A DNA stretch of 45,349 bases. It comes from Thermodesulfobacteriota bacterium. GTDB lineage: Bacteria; Desulfobacterota; Desulfobacteria; Desulfobacterales; JAUWMJ01. The notes beneath the pieces were generated by a model. The model saw nothing but the letters and a program-made list of their open reading frames with translations, had not been told where the DNA came from and did no database searches. The stretch covers positions 1 to 45,349 of the forward strand of contig JAXHVO010000106.1 of assembly GCA_034189135.1 (NCBI GenBank), in the 5' to 3' direction. Shown here piece after piece: positions 35,591 to 45,236 of the stretch. The translations under genes and the position numbers were made by a program. Numbering within the stretch: the first letter of the stretch is position 1; each line of letters begins with the position of its first letter.

Positions 35591-36523
35591 CTAGTCCACC
35601 TCAGGCCTGGGATACAGGCCCGCTTGTTCCACAATTTCAGGCACTTTTTCCTCCCACTCAATGGCCATAACGTGAAAACCGCGAACTCCTTCAACCTCTT
35701 TGAGTCGTTGGATTGCCTCAATACAGATCTTAATGCCTTCCTCAGCCTGTTTTTCCTTGGGGGTGTCCGCCAGACGTTTAACCACTTCGTCAGGTACGTC
35801 CATGCCGGGAACCCGGTTTTTCATATATCTGGCCATGCCGGCATTCTTCATCGGGGTCATTCCTGCCAGTATATAAACCTTTTCATGGAGTCCGCGGTCG
35901 CAAACCATCTTCATCCATTCCTCAAACTTATCAAGGTTGTATATGCACTGAGTCTGGATGAACTCAACACCTGCGGCAACCTTTTTCGCCAGCCGGGGCA
36001 CACGGATCTCAAACGGATCGGCAAAAGGATTTGCGGCCGCTCCCACAAACATCTTCGGAGGACGCTTGATATCATCTCCCCCTAAGAACTTTCCTTCGTC
36101 CCGCATGTGCCGGACGGTTTGAATAAGTTGCATCGAATCAATATCATGAACATTCTGGCCTTGGGAGCAGTCCCCGAAGCTCTGATGATCACCTGAAAGG
36201 CAGAGAATATTGTTTATGTCAAAAGAAGCCGCTCCGAGAATGTCGCTCTGCAGGGCAATACGGTTCCGGTCGCGGGTAACCATCTGAAGCACCGGTTCCA
36301 GGCCAATCAGTTTAAGTCGAATACAGGCGGCCAGACTGCACATGCGTGTGACTGATGTCTGGTTGTCGGTAATATTGATTGCATCCACATGATCCTTGAT
36401 CATATCGGCCTTGTTGATAATTACCTCTGGATCGCTTCCTCGCGGGGGGCCGCACTCGGAGGTAACGGCAAGATGCCCGGCGGCAAGAATTTTTTCTAGT
36501 TTACTCGGTGTCTTTGCTTTCAT
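35591..36523 (-). CDS. metF: Methylenetetrahydrofolate reductase, catalytic subunit
   Basis: A 310-residue TIM-barrel flavoenzyme reducing methylene-H4folate to methyl-H4folate, the last folate-level step of the Wood-Ljungdahl methyl branch. Family blocks: AVTSECGPPRGSDP, AINITDNQTSVTRM, LQMVTRDRNRIALQSD, NILCLSGDH and FIQTQCIYNLDKF. Its start overlaps the metV stop by four bases (ATGA), so MetF and MetV are made together, as in acetogens. A second MetF-like protein heads the operon. Confidence 0.95.
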   Translation of the reverse strand: MKAKTPSKLEKILAAGHLAVTSECGPPRGSDPEVIINKADMIKDHVDAINITDNQTSVTRMCSLAACIRLKLIGLEPVLQMVTRDRNRIALQSDILGAASFDINNILCLSGDHQSFGDCSQGQNVHDIDSMQLIQTVRHMRDEGKFLGGDDIKRPPKMFVGAAANPFADPFEIRVPRLAKKVAAGVEFIQTQCIYNLDKFEEWMKMVCDRGLHEKVYILAGMTPMKNAGMARYMKNRVPGMDVPDEVVKRLADTPKEKQAEEGIKICIEAIQRLKEVEGVRGFHVMAIEWEEKVPEIVEQAGLYPRPEVD

Positions 36524-37188
36524 TGCTGCACATCCTCCCTTATCACTTTTCTGGGCCCACCGGCCCTTTCAGTTGACCAGTCTTTTATAGGGGTGATTTT
36601 TTCATAGTCATCCAGTTTTCCCAATGCCTTGAGACGGTCAATGATCAATTGCCAGGCACAGTCCAACTCCGGATTAATTTCACACTTTCCATTTGTTGAG
36701 CCGCCGCAGGGGCCGTTAAGGATCCTTTTGGCACAGCGGGAAACCGGGCAAATTCCGGCAGTACGTGCTAAAATGCACTCTCCGCAACCCTGGCACCTTT
36801 CAGTCCAGACACCCCGTTCTTCAGTCACACCCATAAAACATGTATTCACCCCCGGAAAAACAGGGGTGGTGTGATATTTTTCGGCCATGAACTGGACGCC
36901 GACCCCGCAGGCTAGAGAGACGACCGCATCGTACTGATCAATCACATCACGAACCTCTTCAAGGTATTCGTGATCGCATTGTCGTTCCAAAGTCCTTTCA
37001 TCTATCCTGACTTCCCGGCCCTGGTTTAGAAAATACATTCTAAGAGCAGAAGATAGGACACCCACCTCCTTTTTTCCTCCTGCCTCGCAGACCGTCACAC
37101 ACTCGTTGCAACCTAAAATGAGGATTTTTTCTTTATCTTTGATTTCCTCAATAATCTCCTCAATCGGCTTTTTATCCGCGACAATCAT
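36520..37188 (-). CDS. metV: MetV, iron-sulfur partner of MetF
   Basis: A 222-residue protein of the MetV type, which carries iron-sulfur or zinc sites and connects MetF to its electron donor. N-terminal GCNECVTVCEAGG (Cys27, Cys30, Cys34), a middle ERQCDHEYLEEV, and a C-terminal cluster region GCGECILARTAGICPVSRC, then NGPCGGSTNGKCE. MetV is required for MetF activity in acetogens. An AGAGAGGTATT ribosome site precedes the ATG. It follows mvhD by 156 bases. Confidence 0.93.
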   Translation of the reverse strand: MIVADKKPIEEIIEEIKDKEKILILGCNECVTVCEAGGKKEVGVLSSALRMYFLNQGREVRIDERTLERQCDHEYLEEVRDVIDQYDAVVSLACGVGVQFMAEKYHTTPVFPGVNTCFMGVTEERGVWTERCQGCGECILARTAGICPVSRCAKRILNGPCGGSTNGKCEINPELDCAWQLIIDRLKALGKLDDYEKITPIKDWSTERAGGPRKVIREDVQQ

Positions 37189-37344: not shown

Positions 37345-37776
37345 TCAAGCTGCCTTTTTCTTGGCCGATTTTATAGGATTTGGACCCAATTTTTGAATTC
37401 TTTTATCCATCTCCACCGCATATTCGGCAAACTTAGGACCTTCCCCTGACGACAGATTGTACATCTGTACCCGTTCTCCTCCGATACCGATAGCATCAAG
37501 AATTTGTTGCGCCTGCTCGACCCGTTTCCGGGCTCTGAAATTGCCGCTGTTATAGTGACAATCCCCTTCCATACACCCGACCACGTACACACCGTCCGCC
37601 CCTTTTTCAAATGCGCGCAGCATATGAAGAATATCCACCTTCCCGGTGCAAGGAACCAGGACGATCCTGATGTTTGTCGGATAACTCAATCGCATTGAAC
37701 CTGCCAGGTCCGCTGCAGTGTAACCTCAGAAATTACAGCAAAATGCTATGATGATCGGTTCAAAATCTTTTCCCAT
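37345..37776 (-). CDS. mvhD: MvhD-type electron-transfer subunit, selenoprotein (UGA at codon 17)
   Basis: A 143-residue protein if TGA 37728-37726 is read as selenocysteine. The frame from ATG 37776 (AGGAGGAATTTT upstream) gives PIIIAFCCNF, Sec17, GYTAADLAGSMRLSYPTNIR, then VPCTGKVD and GCMEGDCHY. This is MvhD from end to end, and the TGA stands exactly where the family has its third N-terminal cysteine (usual pattern CNWC). Without readthrough the protein would lose its N-terminal cysteine motif. MvhD carries a [2Fe-2S] cluster and passes electrons to HdrA. It lies ten bases after hdrA. Confidence 0.9.
37697..37711 (-). promoter_or_regulatory. Candidate SECIS hairpin in mvhD
   Basis: On the minus strand, 14 bases after the TGA, GGACC-TGGCA-GGTTC forms a five-pair stem (one G-U) with a short loop, at a distance suitable for a bacterial SECIS read by SelB. 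Confidence 0.55.
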
Positions 37777-37786
37777 AAAATTCCTC

Positions 37787-40700
37787 CTACATAACTCCCT
37801 CAAGCAAAGCGTCGACTTTGCACAGTATCTGATCGTCTTCGTACCAGTTAAGTTCAATGGCCTTGGCGGGGCATTCAGCCGCGCAAATTCCGCATCCATG
37901 GCACAAAGCGTCATCAATTTCACTCACGCCTTCTTCATTAATCACCGGAACTCCGTAAGGACATGACCGGACGCATACCAGACAGGAAGCGCATACATCT
38001 GTATTGACCCTGGCCGTAATTGCAGACAAGGTAAGCTCATCCTGTGATAAAAACGTAGTTGTTCTTGATACCGCCGCAAGGGACTGAGCGATTGCTTCGG
38101 ACAGAAGCATGGGACTGTGGGCGGTACCGCATACAAATATGCCTTCAGTGGCCATATCCACCGGCCTTAACTTTACATGTGCTTCCAGAAAGTGCCCTTC
38201 AGTATTTCTGGCCAGCTTCAGTATGGAGGCCAGCTCTTCGGTGTCTTCGGCTTTTACCCCTGCACTCAGAGCAAGCAGATCCGCACTGACCTGAAGAGGC
38301 TGACCCAGGATATGGTCCTTAAAGGTGACCTTCAATCCGTCGTCCGCAGCCTCCACCCTTGGAGGATCCTCCGGGGTGTAACGGGAAAAGATAATTCCGA
38401 GTTTCCTGGCTTCGGTGTAATAGTCCTCTAAAAGCCCGTACATGCGGATATCCCGGTAAAGAATATAGATGTCCGCCTGCGGATTCAGTTCTTTTATGTG
38501 AAGGGCATTTTTGATGGCGCTCTGACAACAAACACGGGAGCAATTGGGGTTTTCATCATTTCTTGAGCCCACACACTGGATCATCACTACCTGATTCAAA
38601 TCGTCCAGATCGTTCTTCTCAAGTTGCTCTGATAATTCGATTTGCGTCATCACTCGCGAATCTTCCCCATACAGGTATTCGCCGGGCTGGTATTCGTTGG
38701 CACCCGTTGCAACCACCACAGCCCCGTGATTGATTTTTCTTTCGTACATCCCCGGACCCACCAGGACTTCTGTGGTAAAATTTCCCTTGAATCCGGTAAA
38801 ACCGACAATGAGTGATTGCGTTAAAACCTGGATTTTAGAGTGGGAGGTGACCTTTTCGATCAGCCCTGCCAGGTATTTTTTTACATCTGCTCCGTCTATA
38901 GTTTTGGTAAGACGGTTTGCCAGGCCGCCAAGCTGTTTTTCTTTTTCTACTATGACCGTTTCAAACCCCTGATCGGCAAGACCCAGTGCAGTGTTCATCC
39001 CGGCCACACCGCCGCCGATGATCAAAGCCCTCTTGTTGACCGGAATCTTCTTTTCATGCAATGGAAAGAGGGTTGCGACTCTGGCCACTGCCATTCTGAT
39101 AAGATCCTTTGCTTTTCCCGTGGCTGCAACCGGGTCGTCTGAATGAACCCAGGAATCCTGGTTTCGAATGTTGGCCATTTCAAAAAGATATTTGTTAAGA
39201 CCGCAAGCCTCCAGCGTATCCATAAAAATACCTTCATGTGTTTTCGGCGTACACGAAGCCACCACGATCCGGTTTAAATCATGTTCCGAAATCTGCTCTT
39301 TCATTTGATCCTGAGTATCCTGGGAACAGGTAAAAAGGTTATTGCTGGTATAGACGACATGTGGAAGGGAAGCCGCGTACTCCTCTACGGCCTCTATATC
39401 CACCACCCCGGCAATATTAATACCACACTTACAGACAAATACACCCACCCGTAACTCCTCTCCATCCACGTCGATTTCTTCCGGAATCTCAACGCTTTTG
39501 GTGCACGTGTTTCGGGCTTCAACAAGACTTCTCCCGGCTGCACAGGCCGCCGCACTGGCCTCTATAACCGAACTGGGAATATCTTTCGGTCCCTGGAAGG
39601 TCCCACAGGCATAAACACCCTGACGCGAGGTTTCCACAGGTGTAAAAGGAAGAGTTTCGGCAAAACTGTATCGGTTCAAATTAACATCAAGCCGCTTGGC
39701 AAGTTCCACCGTCGATTGCGAAATCTCAAGTCCAACCGACAAGACCACCATGTCAAAATCCTCTAGCTGAATACGACCGCTTTCATCCACATACTTTATA
39801 CGCAGTTCACCGGTATCCCTAACTTCATCTATGGTATGCACCCTGGCCTTTACAAACCGAACCCCTTCCCTATCCTTTGCCCGGTTATAATATTTCTCAT
39901 AATCCTTGCCAAAGGTTCGGATATCCATGTTAAAAACCACACAATCGAGATCACCCGCGGAATGCTCCTTTGCGATCATCGCTTCTTTAATGGCATAGGT
40001 ACAGCACACAGACGAACAGTAGCCGTTACCGCACCGGTTCATATCCCTTGACCCGATACACTGCAACCAGGCAATATTTTTAGGCTCCTGACTATCCGAC
40101 GGCTTTACCAGATGGCCCATGGTGGGGCCTGATGCGCTGAGGATCCGTTCGAATTCCAGACTGGTCATTACATTTGGATTTCTGCTATAATGGTAAAACT
40201 CCTGCAGCATGGTGGGGTCGAAGACATCGTTGCCCGGACAGAGAACCACCGACCCGACCTCGATTTCTCTTCTTTCAGTTTCCATGCTGTGATCAATTGC
40301 TCCGGCAAGGCACGCATCCACACACTGATAACACTCTGAGCAAATACCGCATTTAAGACACCGCTCTGCCTCGTTTTTCGCTTCGTTTTCATCGTAGCCG
40401 TAGGAAACTTCCAGAAAATTACACTCTCGAGCAGCCGGATCCAGACAGCGAACCGGAGTTCTGGGTTTATGGGATTCAAGAGAGACATCCGGCTTTTCAA
40501 ATTCCCAGGTCTTTTCCCTATCTTTTTTAAGATCCATCCCATTGATAAAACGGTGAATACTCTCGGCAGCTTCCTTGCCGCATGAAACGGCTTCCACCAC
40601 CGATTTGGGACCGTAAAATGCATCACCGCCGGCGAATACCCAGTCAATAGGTGTCTGTAAAGTGACCGGGTCGGCTTCCAAACCGCCCACCCTCGTGACA

Positions 40701-42229
40701 GCAATACCTTGCTCCTTGATGAATGACAGGTCGGTGCTCTGGCCGATGGAGATGATCACCGTGTCGCCGAACACCGGTTGGCACTCGTTTTCATCATATG
40801 ACGGGTTAAAGCGACCGTCGCTGTCAAAAACAGCAGTACAGGTCTTAAACTCTATCCCGGAGACCTTGTTGCTTTTGTCTATGAAAAAGGCCTTGGGTCC
40901 GAAACTGTTAATAATCTTGATATCGCTTTCCAGGGCTTCCTCGATTTCATGCTCCCAGGCGGGCATCTCTTCGCGTTTTTCCAGACAGATCATGGTGACG
41001 GTCTTGGCCCCCTTGCGTTTGGCAGTCAGCGCCACATCGATGGCCACATTGCCGCCACCAACCACTATGACATCGTCGCCAATAGGCACATCTTTGCCCA
41101 TGGCACTATCGCGGAGAAAATCCACGCCCTGGAGAACACCTTCCCCATCTTCGTTTTCAACGCCCAAACTGCGCCCGCCGTGCAGGCCGATGGCCATAAA
41201 CATGGCCGAAAAACCATCTTTTTTAAGGCTTTTCATGGTGATGTCTTTGCCGAAGGTAATCCCGGTTTCAATGGTTACCCCCATTTCTTCGATCACTCTG
41301 ATTTCACTTTGCAGAATATCCCTCGGTAAACGGTATTCAGGGATGCCCACAGCCATCATACCGCCGGCTACCGGCAATTTTTCAAAAATAGTCACCTGGT
41401 AGCCATTTCTTGCCAGAGAATAAGCGGCCGCCAGTCCTGCCGGACCTGAACCAATAATAGCCACCTTTTCATTGCGCGGCTCAGCCGTTTCCGGGATGTA
41501 GCTTGTATCCTGTCCCAATTCCCAGTCGGCCAGGAAGCGATGCAGTTCACGAATGGCCAATGGCTGGTCCACGTCGTTGCGGGTACAGATCTCTTCGCAG
41601 GGATGGTGGCATACCCGGCCACAGATGCCGGGAAAGGGGTGATCCTCTTTAAAAAGCTTCAACGCCTCGAGGTACTTCCCCTCATTGATCAGGGCAATAT
41701 AGCCCTGTATGCTTACATGGGCCGGACAAGTGGCCTTGCAGGGTGCAGTTCCTATCTTACTGATGGCAAAAGCGCCGGGAATGGCTTGGGCGTATTGCTT
41801 ATAAATGGCTTTTCTTTTTGAAAGTCCCTTGTCATACTCGTTGGGAACCTCAATGGGGCATACACCGATACATTCGCCACAGCTGGTACACTTCGAAATG
41901 TCCACATAACGCGCCTTTTGAGTTACCGTTGCGGTGAAATGTCCCACATCGCCATTGAGTTCTTCAAGTTCCGTATTGGTTAAAAGTTCTATGTTCAAAT
42001 GCCGGCCGACCTCGACCAGTTTAGGCGAAATCACTCACATGGCACAGTCGTTGGTTGGAAAGGTCTTGTCCAGCTGAGACATCATTCCGCCAATGGCTGA
42101 AGACTTTTCAAGCATGTAAACGTAGTATCCTGAGTTGGCAAGATCCAGGGCGGACTGCATTCCGGCAATCCCTCCGCCAACAACCATGACTGATCCAATA
42201 ATTTCTTTGCTATTATTTTTGTCGCTCAT
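37787..42229 (-). CDS. hdrA: Fused HdrA-NfnB/GltD-HdrA flavoprotein, selenoprotein (UGA at codon 65)
   Basis: Read through the TGA at 42037-42035 the gene encodes 1,480 residues. Residues 1-64 are an HdrA FAD fold ([17 protein letters not shown]) ending TNDCAM, then Sec65, then [12 protein letters not shown], where other HdrA proteins have Cys. A [4Fe-4S] motif [12 protein letters not shown] follows (114-124). Residues about 160-570 are an NfnB/GltD-like module ([44 protein letters not shown]). The first HdrA unit then resumes ([13 protein letters not shown] near 624), and a second, full HdrA unit starts near 927 ([30 protein letters not shown]). Two [4Fe-4S] motifs end the chain. It should take NAD(P)H and move electrons between two FADs, MvhD and MetVF. 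Confidence 0.93.
42002..42019 (-). promoter_or_regulatory. Candidate SECIS hairpin in hdrA
   Basis: On the minus strand, 15 bases after the TGA, CTGGTC-GAGGTC-GGCCGG folds into a six-pair stem (two G-U) with a GAGGUC loop, close to the GGUC-type loop of known bacterial SECIS elements. Confidence 0.6.
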
Positions 42230-42239
42230 TTTTTATTCC

Positions 42240-43109
42240 TTAAATCCTTTCAAGTATTTGTGGAAGTTTGCTTTCCCATCCGATGGTGGATAGAAGAACC
42301 CCGCTGAATCCCTCTTTTTTTAACGTGGCGACCATTTCAGCTGCAATAAGAGTACACTCGCGAACTTTATCGGGTGATTTTTGGATCCGTTTAATCAGGG
42401 AATCGGGAATAAAAACATTATCCACGTTACGAACCATATAGCGGGCCATACCCAGTGATTTAAGCAGCAGCACGGTGGGAATAATCTTTGCCTTTTCAGT
42501 GTTCACCTTTTTTATGAAAGGCTCGATGGCAGAAAGATCAAATAAAGGCGGGGTGATGAAAAATTGGGTACCTGCATTGATCTTCTTGTTCATCTCTTCA
42601 AGTACCAAATCCGGAGACTTCCCTTTTGCACCTGCATCAACCGTGGAACCGACCAGAAACTGCGGAGAACCTGAAAGATCAATTCCGGCCATATCCTTCC
42701 CCTGTTGAAGACCGCTGATGACCTGCAACAGTTGCTCCAAATCGATGTCATACACCGATCTTGCCTGATGGTGATCTCCAAATCCCGGATCTTCTCCTTT
42801 CACTGCCATTACATTGGTAATACCACAGCCAAAGGCAGCAAGAAGATCGGCCTGAAGGGCAATTCTGTTTCTGTCCCGGCAATTGAGCTGCATGACCGTA
42901 TCCATCCCTTTTGCCTGCAAAATCATGGCAGCACCCAGGGAACTCATCCGCATCACAGCGTTGCTCATTTCCGGTACCAAAAAAGCATCCACTTCGCCTT
43001 TAACCCTTTGAGCATCGGCAACCATCCCGGTGATATCTACCCCCTTGGGTGGCTCCATTTCTGCAAGGATGGCAAATTCCCCTGCGTTAAATTTGTTTTT
43101 TAAATGCAT
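42240..43109 (-). CDS. Second MetF-family methylenetetrahydrofolate reductase
   Basis: A 289-residue TIM-barrel MetF paralogue heading the operon. Blocks parallel to metF: ILAEMEPPKGVDI, MQLNCRDRNRIALQADLL, NVMAVKGEDPGFGDH, GTQFFITPPLFDLSAIEPF and LGMARYMVRNVDNVFIP. It is clearly diverged from the downstream metF (for example TPP where metF has TQC), so the copies are not a recent duplicate. It lies ten bases before hdrA and uses CCGGAGGTAAACTT as ribosome site. It may be an alternative catalytic subunit or a specialised partner of HdrA. Confidence 0.92.
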   Translation of the reverse strand: MHLKNKFNAGEFAILAEMEPPKGVDITGMVADAQRVKGEVDAFLVPEMSNAVMRMSSLGAAMILQAKGMDTVMQLNCRDRNRIALQADLLAAFGCGITNVMAVKGEDPGFGDHHQARSVYDIDLEQLLQVISGLQQGKDMAGIDLSGSPQFLVGSTVDAGAKGKSPDLVLEEMNKKINAGTQFFITPPLFDLSAIEPFIKKVNTEKAKIIPTVLLLKSLGMARYMVRNVDNVFIPDSLIKRIQKSPDKVRECTLIAAEMVATLKKEGFSGVLLSTIGWESKLPQILERI

Positions 43110-43865: not shown

Positions 43866-45236
43866 ATGGATAACACCATCATTTTAGTGGATGATGATCC
43901 GGATTTTGTTGAGATATTAAAAGTAAAATTAAAAAGAATCGGTTTTACCAATGTACGTACCGAAGTTGATTCGGTGAAAGCCGCCTCCCTTTTTGAAAGG
44001 GGGCAGACCTTTGATGTGGCTTTGATAGATATGTCCATGCCCGACTTGAATGGTATCCAGCTGCTTGAACGAATAAAAAACACTTCGCCCGGCACTGAAT
44101 GTATCATGGTGACTGCAGTAAACGATGCCAGGGTAGCAGTGGACTGTCTGAAAAAGGGGGCTTATGATTATCTGGTCAAACCGATTGAAAGAGAAGATCT
44201 TGTCCTGTCGATACACCGTGCTTTGGAAAGAAAGCGCTTGCTTGACATTCTGGATGTTAAAAAGAAAGCCTCCCTGCCAAAACTGATTTACGCCGATACC
44301 TTTAAGCCAATCATCACCCGGTCACATAAGATGCTCAGGATATTAAAAGAAGCGGAACTCCATGCAAAAAGCGATGTACCGATTTTGATTACCGGTGAAA
44401 GTGGCACCGGCAAAGAGCTTTTGGCTAAGGCGATTCACTGCACCAGCCCAAGGTCCAAGTTTAAATTTACTCCGGTAAATATGGCCTCTTTGACTACTGG
44501 CCTGTTCGAGGCCGAATTTTTCGGACATACCAAAGGCGCTTTTACCGGTGCGGAAAACCAACGCGCAGGTTTCCTGGAACACACAAACCAGGGAACTCTT
44601 TTTTTAGATGAAATTGGCAATCTTCCCCTTGAACTCCAGGGAAAACTGTTGCGCGTTCTGCAGGACGGAGAATATTTTAAGCTGGGCTCGAGCAGCCATC
44701 AGACAGCGGATGTTCGTTTAATCACTGCAACCAATGAAGACTTAGATAAGCTAATGGCAAAGGGGATGTTCCGTAAGGATCTATATTACCGAATCCGCTG
44801 TGGATGGCTTCATCTTCCTCCTCTCAGGGAAAGAAAAGAGGATATTCCTCTGCTGGTAAAAAAATTCTTTCAGGAGTACAACGGAACAGGTAACTCACAA
44901 AATATTGGGGAAGAAGCCATCCGACTGCTTATGGATTATGATTATCCCGGAAATATAAGAGAACTTAAAGCCATCATCCAGTCTGCGGTGAACCTGGCTC
45001 AGGGAAAGCCGATTTCAGCGAACTTCCTGCCGGATCATCTGAAAAAAAATATGGCGGTGTCACCCTGTGCCGATTCGCCTGAAAAACCCTCAGTGGCCAA
45101 GCTCTCACAGATTGAAAAAAACCATATTCTCCATACCTATAACCATACCGGCCAAAATAAATCTCAAACAGCCAGACTGTTAGGGATTGGTCTGAACACA
45201 CTTAGAAGAAAACTAAAGGCCTATGGTGTTAACTAG
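43866..45236 (+). CDS. Sigma-54-dependent response regulator (NtrC family)
   Basis: A 456-residue activator. Receiver at 1-120 (IILVDDDPDF, phosphoacceptor Asp55 in LIDMSMPD, LVKP), an AAA+ domain with Walker A GESGTGKE, the sigma-54 contact loop GAFTGA intact, Walker B GTLFLDEIGN and RKDLYYRI, and a C-terminal Fis-type helix-turn-helix (NKSQTARLLGIGLNTLRRKL). It should activate sigma-54 promoters. It is divergent from the Hdr/Met operon, whose promoter region has a sigma-54 match, so that operon is the likely target. No kinase gene is adjacent; the kinases at 31-34 kb are candidates. Confidence 0.95.
   Translation: MDNTIILVDDDPDFVEILKVKLKRIGFTNVRTEVDSVKAASLFERGQTFDVALIDMSMPDLNGIQLLERIKNTSPGTECIMVTAVNDARVAVDCLKKGAYDYLVKPIEREDLVLSIHRALERKRLLDILDVKKKASLPKLIYADTFKPIITRSHKMLRILKEAELHAKSDVPILITGESGTGKELLAKAIHCTSPRSKFKFTPVNMASLTTGLFEAEFFGHTKGAFTGAENQRAGFLEHTNQGTLFLDEIGNLPLELQGKLLRVLQDGEYFKLGSSSHQTADVRLITATNEDLDKLMAKGMFRKDLYYRIRCGWLHLPPLRERKEDIPLLVKKFFQEYNGTGNSQNIGEEAIRLLMDYDYPGNIRELKAIIQSAVNLAQGKPISANFLPDHLKKNMAVSPCADSPEKPSVAKLSQIEKNHILHTYNHTGQNKSQTARLLGIGLNTLRRKLKAYGVN

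What the first reader, a model, noticed from the sequence alone, without database searches (positions are those of the whole stretch)
37726..37728. Second selenoprotein next door: MvhD with UGA at codon 17
The frame from ATG 37776 reads IIAFCCNF-Sec-GYTAADLAGS and runs into the rest of MvhD. The TGA replaces a cluster-ligand-position Cys. A short hairpin lies 14 bases on. Two UGA codons in adjacent interacting subunits (HdrA and MvhD) suggest selenium at the electron-transfer interface, not chance mutation. The usual annotation would begin at the internal ATG 37695 and lose the cysteine motif.
Basis: partly seen in the sequence, partly recalled or inferred. Interest (0 to 1): 0.85.

Follow-up and report, generated by a model that had tools for sequence, protein, structure and literature searches.

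The report
Selenocysteine MvhD beside selenocysteine HdrA
The apparent stop codon near the start of this electron-transfer gene is almost certainly read as selenocysteine, as in many related anaerobic bacteria; it is a real and well-conserved selenoprotein, but of a kind already known.

Summary
Confirmed. The UGA at 37728-37726 (minus strand) is codon 17 of mvhD, which starts at ATG 37776 directly after hdrL (HdrA with a GltD-like insert and its own UGA at codon 65). The genome has SelA, SelD, two SelB and two tRNA-Sec. All ~150 best orthologues listed from the order carry one in-frame UGA; those read in full have it at the second Cys of CxxC. Codons +5 to +9 after the UGA, which form the hairpin GGACCU-GGC-AGGUUC, are almost frozen synonymously (relative entropy 0.06, gene median 0.83), while Cys homologues vary freely there: a SECIS signature. 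The HdrA UGA shows the same. Cys orthologues have Cys at the HdrA site too. Sec in HdrA and MvhD co-occur (47 both Sec, 44 both Cys, 3 mixed), but few independent events support this, so coupling is unproven. Such Sec pairs have been known since 2006, with HdrL since 2009: a new member of a known kind. Less described: paralogues here put Sec at either of two sites, or both, each with its own SECIS-like hairpin, and there is a second tRNA-Sec/SelB cassette.

The parts
37345..37776 (-). mvhD (flpD) coding sequence, 143 aa, with in-frame UGA codon 17; terminal stop TGA at 37345-37347
   Evidence: PF02662, 1.9e-49; Z 24 to 5odc_D
37726..37728 (-). UGA codon 17 read as selenocysteine, at the second Cys of the CxxC motif (site 1)
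   Evidence: one in-frame TGA in all ~150 listed orthologues of the order, at this codon in those read; Cys in more distant homologues
37697..37711 (-). SECIS-like hairpin GGACCU-GGC-AGGUUC, loop with G, stem begins 15 nt after UGA
   Evidence: codons +5..+9 frozen synonymously in 42 orthologues; not frozen in 99 Cys homologues; predicted fold
37783..37788 (-). Shine-Dalgarno AGGAGG, 6 nt before the ATG at 37776
   Evidence: sequence
37693..37695 (-). internal ATG that a standard gene caller would take as start
37787..42229 (-). hdrL: HdrA with inserted GltD/NfnB-like NAD(P)H domain (about residues 160-636), 1480 aa with one UGA
42035..42037 (-). UGA codon 65 of hdrL (TNDCAMU), selenocysteine
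42002..42019 (-). SECIS-like hairpin CUGGUCG-AGGU-CGGCCGG after the hdrL UGA, by analogy with homologues whose codons +6..+11 are frozen; it is not the minimum-energy fold of the window sequence alone
36520..37188 (-). metV-like gene (PF12225), next gene downstream
35591..36523 (-). metF (PF02219, methylenetetrahydrofolate reductase)
42240..43109 (-). second MTHFR-fold gene, immediately upstream of hdrL

Best explanation
UGA17 of mvhD is decoded as selenocysteine by the SelB/tRNA-Sec machinery of this sulfate-reducer-like bacterium, guided by a bacterial SECIS hairpin directly downstream. The product is a small [2Fe-2S] electron-transfer subunit that docks on HdrL, itself a selenoprotein, and passes electrons between HdrL and a partner, most likely the MetV/MetF methylenetetrahydrofolate reductase encoded next to it. 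Shown here: the frame, the machinery, the conservation of the UGA, the constrained RNA element, the Cys counterparts, the family. Inferred from the solved Mvh-Hdr complexes and from MetVF-MvhD-HdrCBA of Sporomusa: the cluster, the docking and the electron path. Not known: what the selenium itself does (cluster ligand, or a redox-active residue near the cluster).
For: Sec machinery: tRNA-Sec, SelA, SelB, SelD with its own UGA. One in-frame UGA in every listed orthologue of the order; 288/291 genomes have a hit. Frozen synonymous sites exactly at the hairpin: relative entropy 0.06 at +5..+9, gene median 0.83; Sec against Cys comparison. Same signature at the HdrA UGA. Cys orthologues at 65-68% identity with Cys17 and HdrA Cys. 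Precedent: Sec FrhD/HdrA in Deltaproteobacteria (PMC1794560), HdrL plus Sec mvhD in Desulfobacterium autotrophicum (PMC2702500), mvhD UGA in Desulfococcus multivorans (PMC5109826). Solved MvhD 9sfi_K has residues printed as X (non-standard) at both Sec sites.
Against: No expression or mass-spectrometry data for this organism. The window hairpin alone is not more stable than shuffled sequence, and no Rfam match reached threshold. Cysteine misincorporation at UGA cannot be excluded by sequence. The MetVF partnership rests on gene order.
Confidence: 0.95

Rival explanations
1. The UGA is a real stop and translation starts at the internal ATG 37695, giving a 116-aa protein without the N-terminal cysteine motif.
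For: This is the standard ORF call.
Against: The 16 codons before the UGA are conserved and preceded by a perfect Shine-Dalgarno sequence; the UGA is kept in the listed orthologues; the RNA after it is frozen; Cys orthologues read straight through.
Confidence: 0.01
2. Nonsense mutation or sequencing error in a Cys codon (TGC/TGT to TGA).
For: One base separates TGA from TGC/TGT.
Against: The same codon is TGA across the order in independent assemblies.
Confidence: 0.005
3. The UGA is recoded, but the selenium in MvhD is not functionally linked to the selenium in HdrA; both are Sec only because the lineage uses Sec widely in low-potential redox proteins.
For: Mixed pairs exist: HdrA-Cys with MvhD-Sec (L085, L087, L248-L250) and HdrA-Sec with MvhD-Cys (L142, C82 of this genome); on the tree only 3-4 independent concordant contrasts remain, p 0.125-0.5.
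Against: No opposite contrast on the tree; 47 both-Sec and 44 both-Cys of 94 pairs; Cys orthologues of this HdrL-MvhD pair with both genes in view are Cys in both, although most of those genomes have SelB.
Confidence: 0.4

Closest known systems
Sec-containing FrhD/MvhD/VhuD (PF02662; NCBIfam NF045873 VhuD) of Deltaproteobacteria, Clostridia and methanogens
   Same: Sec in the CxxU motif, gene next to Sec hdrA (PMC1794560, PMC13188914)
   Different: Here in an hdrL-mvhD-metV-metF cluster without a hydrogenase; scores below the curated VhuD cut-off (185.9 against 215 bits), so it is not that exact subfamily
HdrL plus MvhD of Desulfobacterium autotrophicum HRM2
   Same: Large HdrA with NAD(P)H domain, Sec in HdrL1/HdrL3 and in mvhD1, 2, 3, 5, mvhD directly after hdrL (PMC2702500)
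   Different: The HRM2 HdrL1 cluster continues with dsrABC; the window cluster carries metV and metF
MetVF-MvhD-HdrCBA complex of Sporomusa ovata
   Same: Methylenetetrahydrofolate reductase MetVF linked through MvhD to Hdr proteins (PMC9430772)
   Different: HdrCBA there; here one HdrL with a GltD-like domain and no HdrBC next to it
Solved MvhD in 9sfi/9t1s (F420-non-reducing hydrogenase subunit delta)
   Same: Closest solved relative by sequence over the whole chain, non-standard residue at the same site 1
   Different: Also a non-standard residue at site 2 (GXKPNEC), which is Cys in the window protein

Membership tests
MvhD/FlpD (PF02662) | Full-length match to the family profile above the curated cut-off | tested here: met
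   167.2 bits, cut-off 22.3, profile 1-123 of 123
MvhD/FlpD (PF02662) | Fold of solved MvhD | tested here: met
   AlphaFold model pLDDT 90.8; Z 24.0, rmsd 1.1 over 138 residues to 5odc_D
MvhD/FlpD (PF02662) | Binds one [2Fe-2S] cluster | not testable with these tools
   Cys/Sec positions 14, 17, 43, 68, 73 invariant in alignment A2; cluster inferred from PMC12350162 and PMC6019823
Bacterial selenoprotein | In-frame UGA conserved, with Cys in homologues at the same position | tested here: met
Bacterial selenoprotein | SECIS stem-loop just downstream of UGA, G in the apical loop | tested here: met
   loop GGC, stem starts at +15
Bacterial selenoprotein | SelA, SelB, SelD and tRNA-Sec in the genome | tested here: met
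Bacterial selenoprotein | Selenium present in the protein | not testable with these tools
   needs 75Se labelling or mass spectrometry
VhuD (NF045873) | Score above the curated cut-off | tested here: not met
   185.9 bits against 215
HdrL (HdrA with inserted GltD-like domain) | HdrA segments flanking a NAD(P)H/FAD GltD-NfnB-like insert | tested here: met
   HdrA matches at 12-158, 629-834, 922-1102 and 1292-1476; NfnA/GltD matches at about 161-636

The most novel reading that the evidence does not exclude
MvhD paralogues flanking one HdrA use different Sec sites (the copy before hdrA has GUxxGDC, the copy after it CxxU or both), each with its own dedicated SECIS. In genomes with two divergent SelB/tRNA-Sec sets, decoding could be divided between the sets. 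If so, selenium would be placed site by site to tune two electron paths into one HdrA, under separate translational control.
Probability: 0.1. Interest if true: 0.55.

Novelty: new member of a known kind. Interest (0 to 1): 0.3.

Why it matters
Standard annotation truncates this protein and loses its cysteine/selenocysteine motif across an order of sulfate-reducer-like bacteria. The comparison gives natural Sec/Sec, Cys/Cys and mixed HdrA-MvhD pairs, which makes the unknown role of selenium next to the bifurcating flavin directly testable. The protein family and its Sec use are already in the literature.

Tried and rejected
Single-sequence folding as evidence for SECIS: rejected, not significant for the window. 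Rfam scan of the region: no match. The genome-contig scan used a pattern that demands Cys at site 1, so its 80 loci are biased to Cys; Sec orthologues were therefore drawn from the genome search. The identity of the [2Fe-2S] ligands was looked for in open papers and not found. Papers naming 9sfi/9t1s: none held; the entry did not appear among the structure matches. Selenoprotein genes close to the second SelB copies: none convincing in a simple motif scan. A double Sec in the window MvhD was rejected: its site 2 is Cys. An alignment with wrong coordinates was discarded.

Full report
What is there. On the minus strand the frame from ATG 37776 reads MGKDFEPIIIAFCCNFUGYTAADLAGSMRLSYP... with TGA at 37728-37726 as codon 17 and ends at TGA 37345-37347. 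AGGAGG lies 6 bases before the ATG, at the stop codon of the upstream gene. The protein is MvhD/FlpD (PF02662, 167 bits); an AlphaFold model (pLDDT 90.8) superposes on MvhD of solved Hdr complexes at Z 23-24.

Surroundings. Upstream is a 1480-aa HdrL with one in-frame UGA at codon 65 (42037-42035) in TNDCAMU. It has HdrA segments around a GltD/NfnB-like NAD(P)H domain. Downstream lie a MetV-like gene (PF12225) and MetF (PF02219); a second MTHFR-fold gene precedes hdrL. No hydrogenase subunit is adjacent.

Machinery. The assembly (4.6 Mb, 95.5% complete) has SelA, SelD that itself holds a UGA, two SelB above the curated cut-off and two tRNA-Sec with anticodon UCA.

Conservation of the UGA. In 288 of 291 genomes of the order there is an MvhD hit, and each of the roughly 150 best matches listed carries exactly one in-frame TGA. 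Those read in full have it at the same codon. Across the phylum, orthologues at 65-68% identity without a TGA appear; they read CH[YF]C in place of CNFU. One match in the phylum search has a TAA besides the TGA; it was not followed up.

The RNA element. Anchored on the UGA, 42 orthologues vary at synonymous sites all along the gene (median relative entropy of five-codon windows 0.83) except at codons +5 to +9, where it falls to 0.06. These codons, GCG GAC CTG GCA GGT, make the hairpin GGACCU-GGC-AGGUUC. In 99 Cys homologues the same amino acids use free codons. This is the signature expected of a bacterial SECIS element. HdrA shows the same: codons +6 to +11 after its UGA are frozen in Sec genes and free in Cys genes.

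Two Sec sites. The genome has 14 FlpD-family hits. Sec occurs at site 1 (CxxU: window, C57b, C90), at site 2 (GUxxGDC: C130a, C57a, C94, C48), or at both (C130b). Site 2 has its own frozen hairpin, AUUACC-loop-GGUAAU, with a compensatory variant in L087 (AUUUCC/GGAAAU). Where two mvhD flank one hdrA, the one before it has site 2 and the one after it site 1 or both. A solved MvhD (9sfi_K, also 9t1s) has residues printed as X at both sites, presumably Sec; I could not read the entry itself.

Pairing with HdrA. Of 94 adjacent pairs, 47 are Sec/Sec, 44 Cys/Cys, 2 HdrA-Cys/MvhD-Sec and 1 HdrA-Sec/MvhD-Cys (MvhD counts as Sec if either site is). Later loci add HdrA-Cys/MvhD-Sec cases (L248-L250) and Cys/Cys orthologues of HdrL-MvhD (L232, L233, L235, L237-L242; L082 and L241 look like the same contig). 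Most of the genomes with the Cys pair still have SelB. Many pairs are close relatives: on the MvhD tree the HdrA state changes 8 times and the MvhD state 11 times, and only 3-4 independent contrasts go the same way, none the other way, p 0.125-0.5. The sample was drawn partly by similarity to the window gene. So paired Sec is the rule, coupling is likely but unproven, and HdrA-Sec without MvhD-Sec is rare.

Mechanism. Shown: the Sec decoding signature, the family, the gene order. Inferred from solved complexes: MvhD carries one [2Fe-2S] cluster near the bifurcating flavin of HdrA and connects the electron donor module to HdrA (PMC12350162, PMC6019823). Inferred from gene order and from the MetVF-MvhD-HdrCBA link in Sporomusa ovata (PMC9430772): MvhD links HdrL to MetVF. 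The direction may be either, since complete oxidisers run the Wood-Ljungdahl pathway in reverse (established knowledge). The role of selenium at site 1 is open: a cluster ligand, or a fifth residue able to form a selenyl-sulfide or to tune potential. There are five invariant Cys/Sec positions (14, 17, 43, 68, 73) for a cluster that needs four ligands.

Known or new. FrhD/MvhD and HdrA selenoproteins, in one operon, were described in Deltaproteobacteria and archaea in 2006 (PMC1794560), HdrL with Sec and Sec mvhD in 2009 (PMC2702500), an mvhD UGA in Desulfococcus multivorans in 2016 (PMC5109826), and a 2026 review lists FrhD with CxxU and two Sec (PMC13188914). The window gene is a new member of this known kind. 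I did not find a description of the alternation of Sec sites by gene position, nor of the second SelB cassette in these bacteria, in the held library, which lacks most subscription journals.

Noticed in passing
G000 C62:115833-117874 (L079 7835-9878); also L073-L078 in six other genomes of the order: A second tRNA-Sec (anticodon UCA) directly upstream of a divergent second SelB (29% identical to the first). Seven of 58 genomes have a second SelB. Neighbours include a double-cubane reductase and its activase, or HdrA/MvhD genes. Function of the duplicate set unknown.
   Followed up: partly
L066 4169-4573 (G000 C130), L125, L139, L141, L143: Bacterial MvhD with UGA at both Sec sites (CTWU and GUxxxxC), each with its own SECIS-like hairpin.
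   Followed up: partly
G000 C82 (L061), L142: Exceptions to pairing: HdrA with UGA next to an all-Cys MvhD.
   Followed up: no
window 42240-43109 and 35591-36523: Two MTHFR-fold genes flank the hdrL-mvhD-metV unit; the upstream one scores lower and may not be a true MetF.
   Followed up: no
window 43866-45236: Response regulator with sigma-54 activation and Fis-type domains, divergently placed at the edge of the cluster; possible regulator.
   Followed up: no
L248, L249, L250: MvhD with Sec at site 1 next to a HdrA with Cys in other families of the phylum, which suggests MvhD can carry Sec on its own.
   Followed up: no
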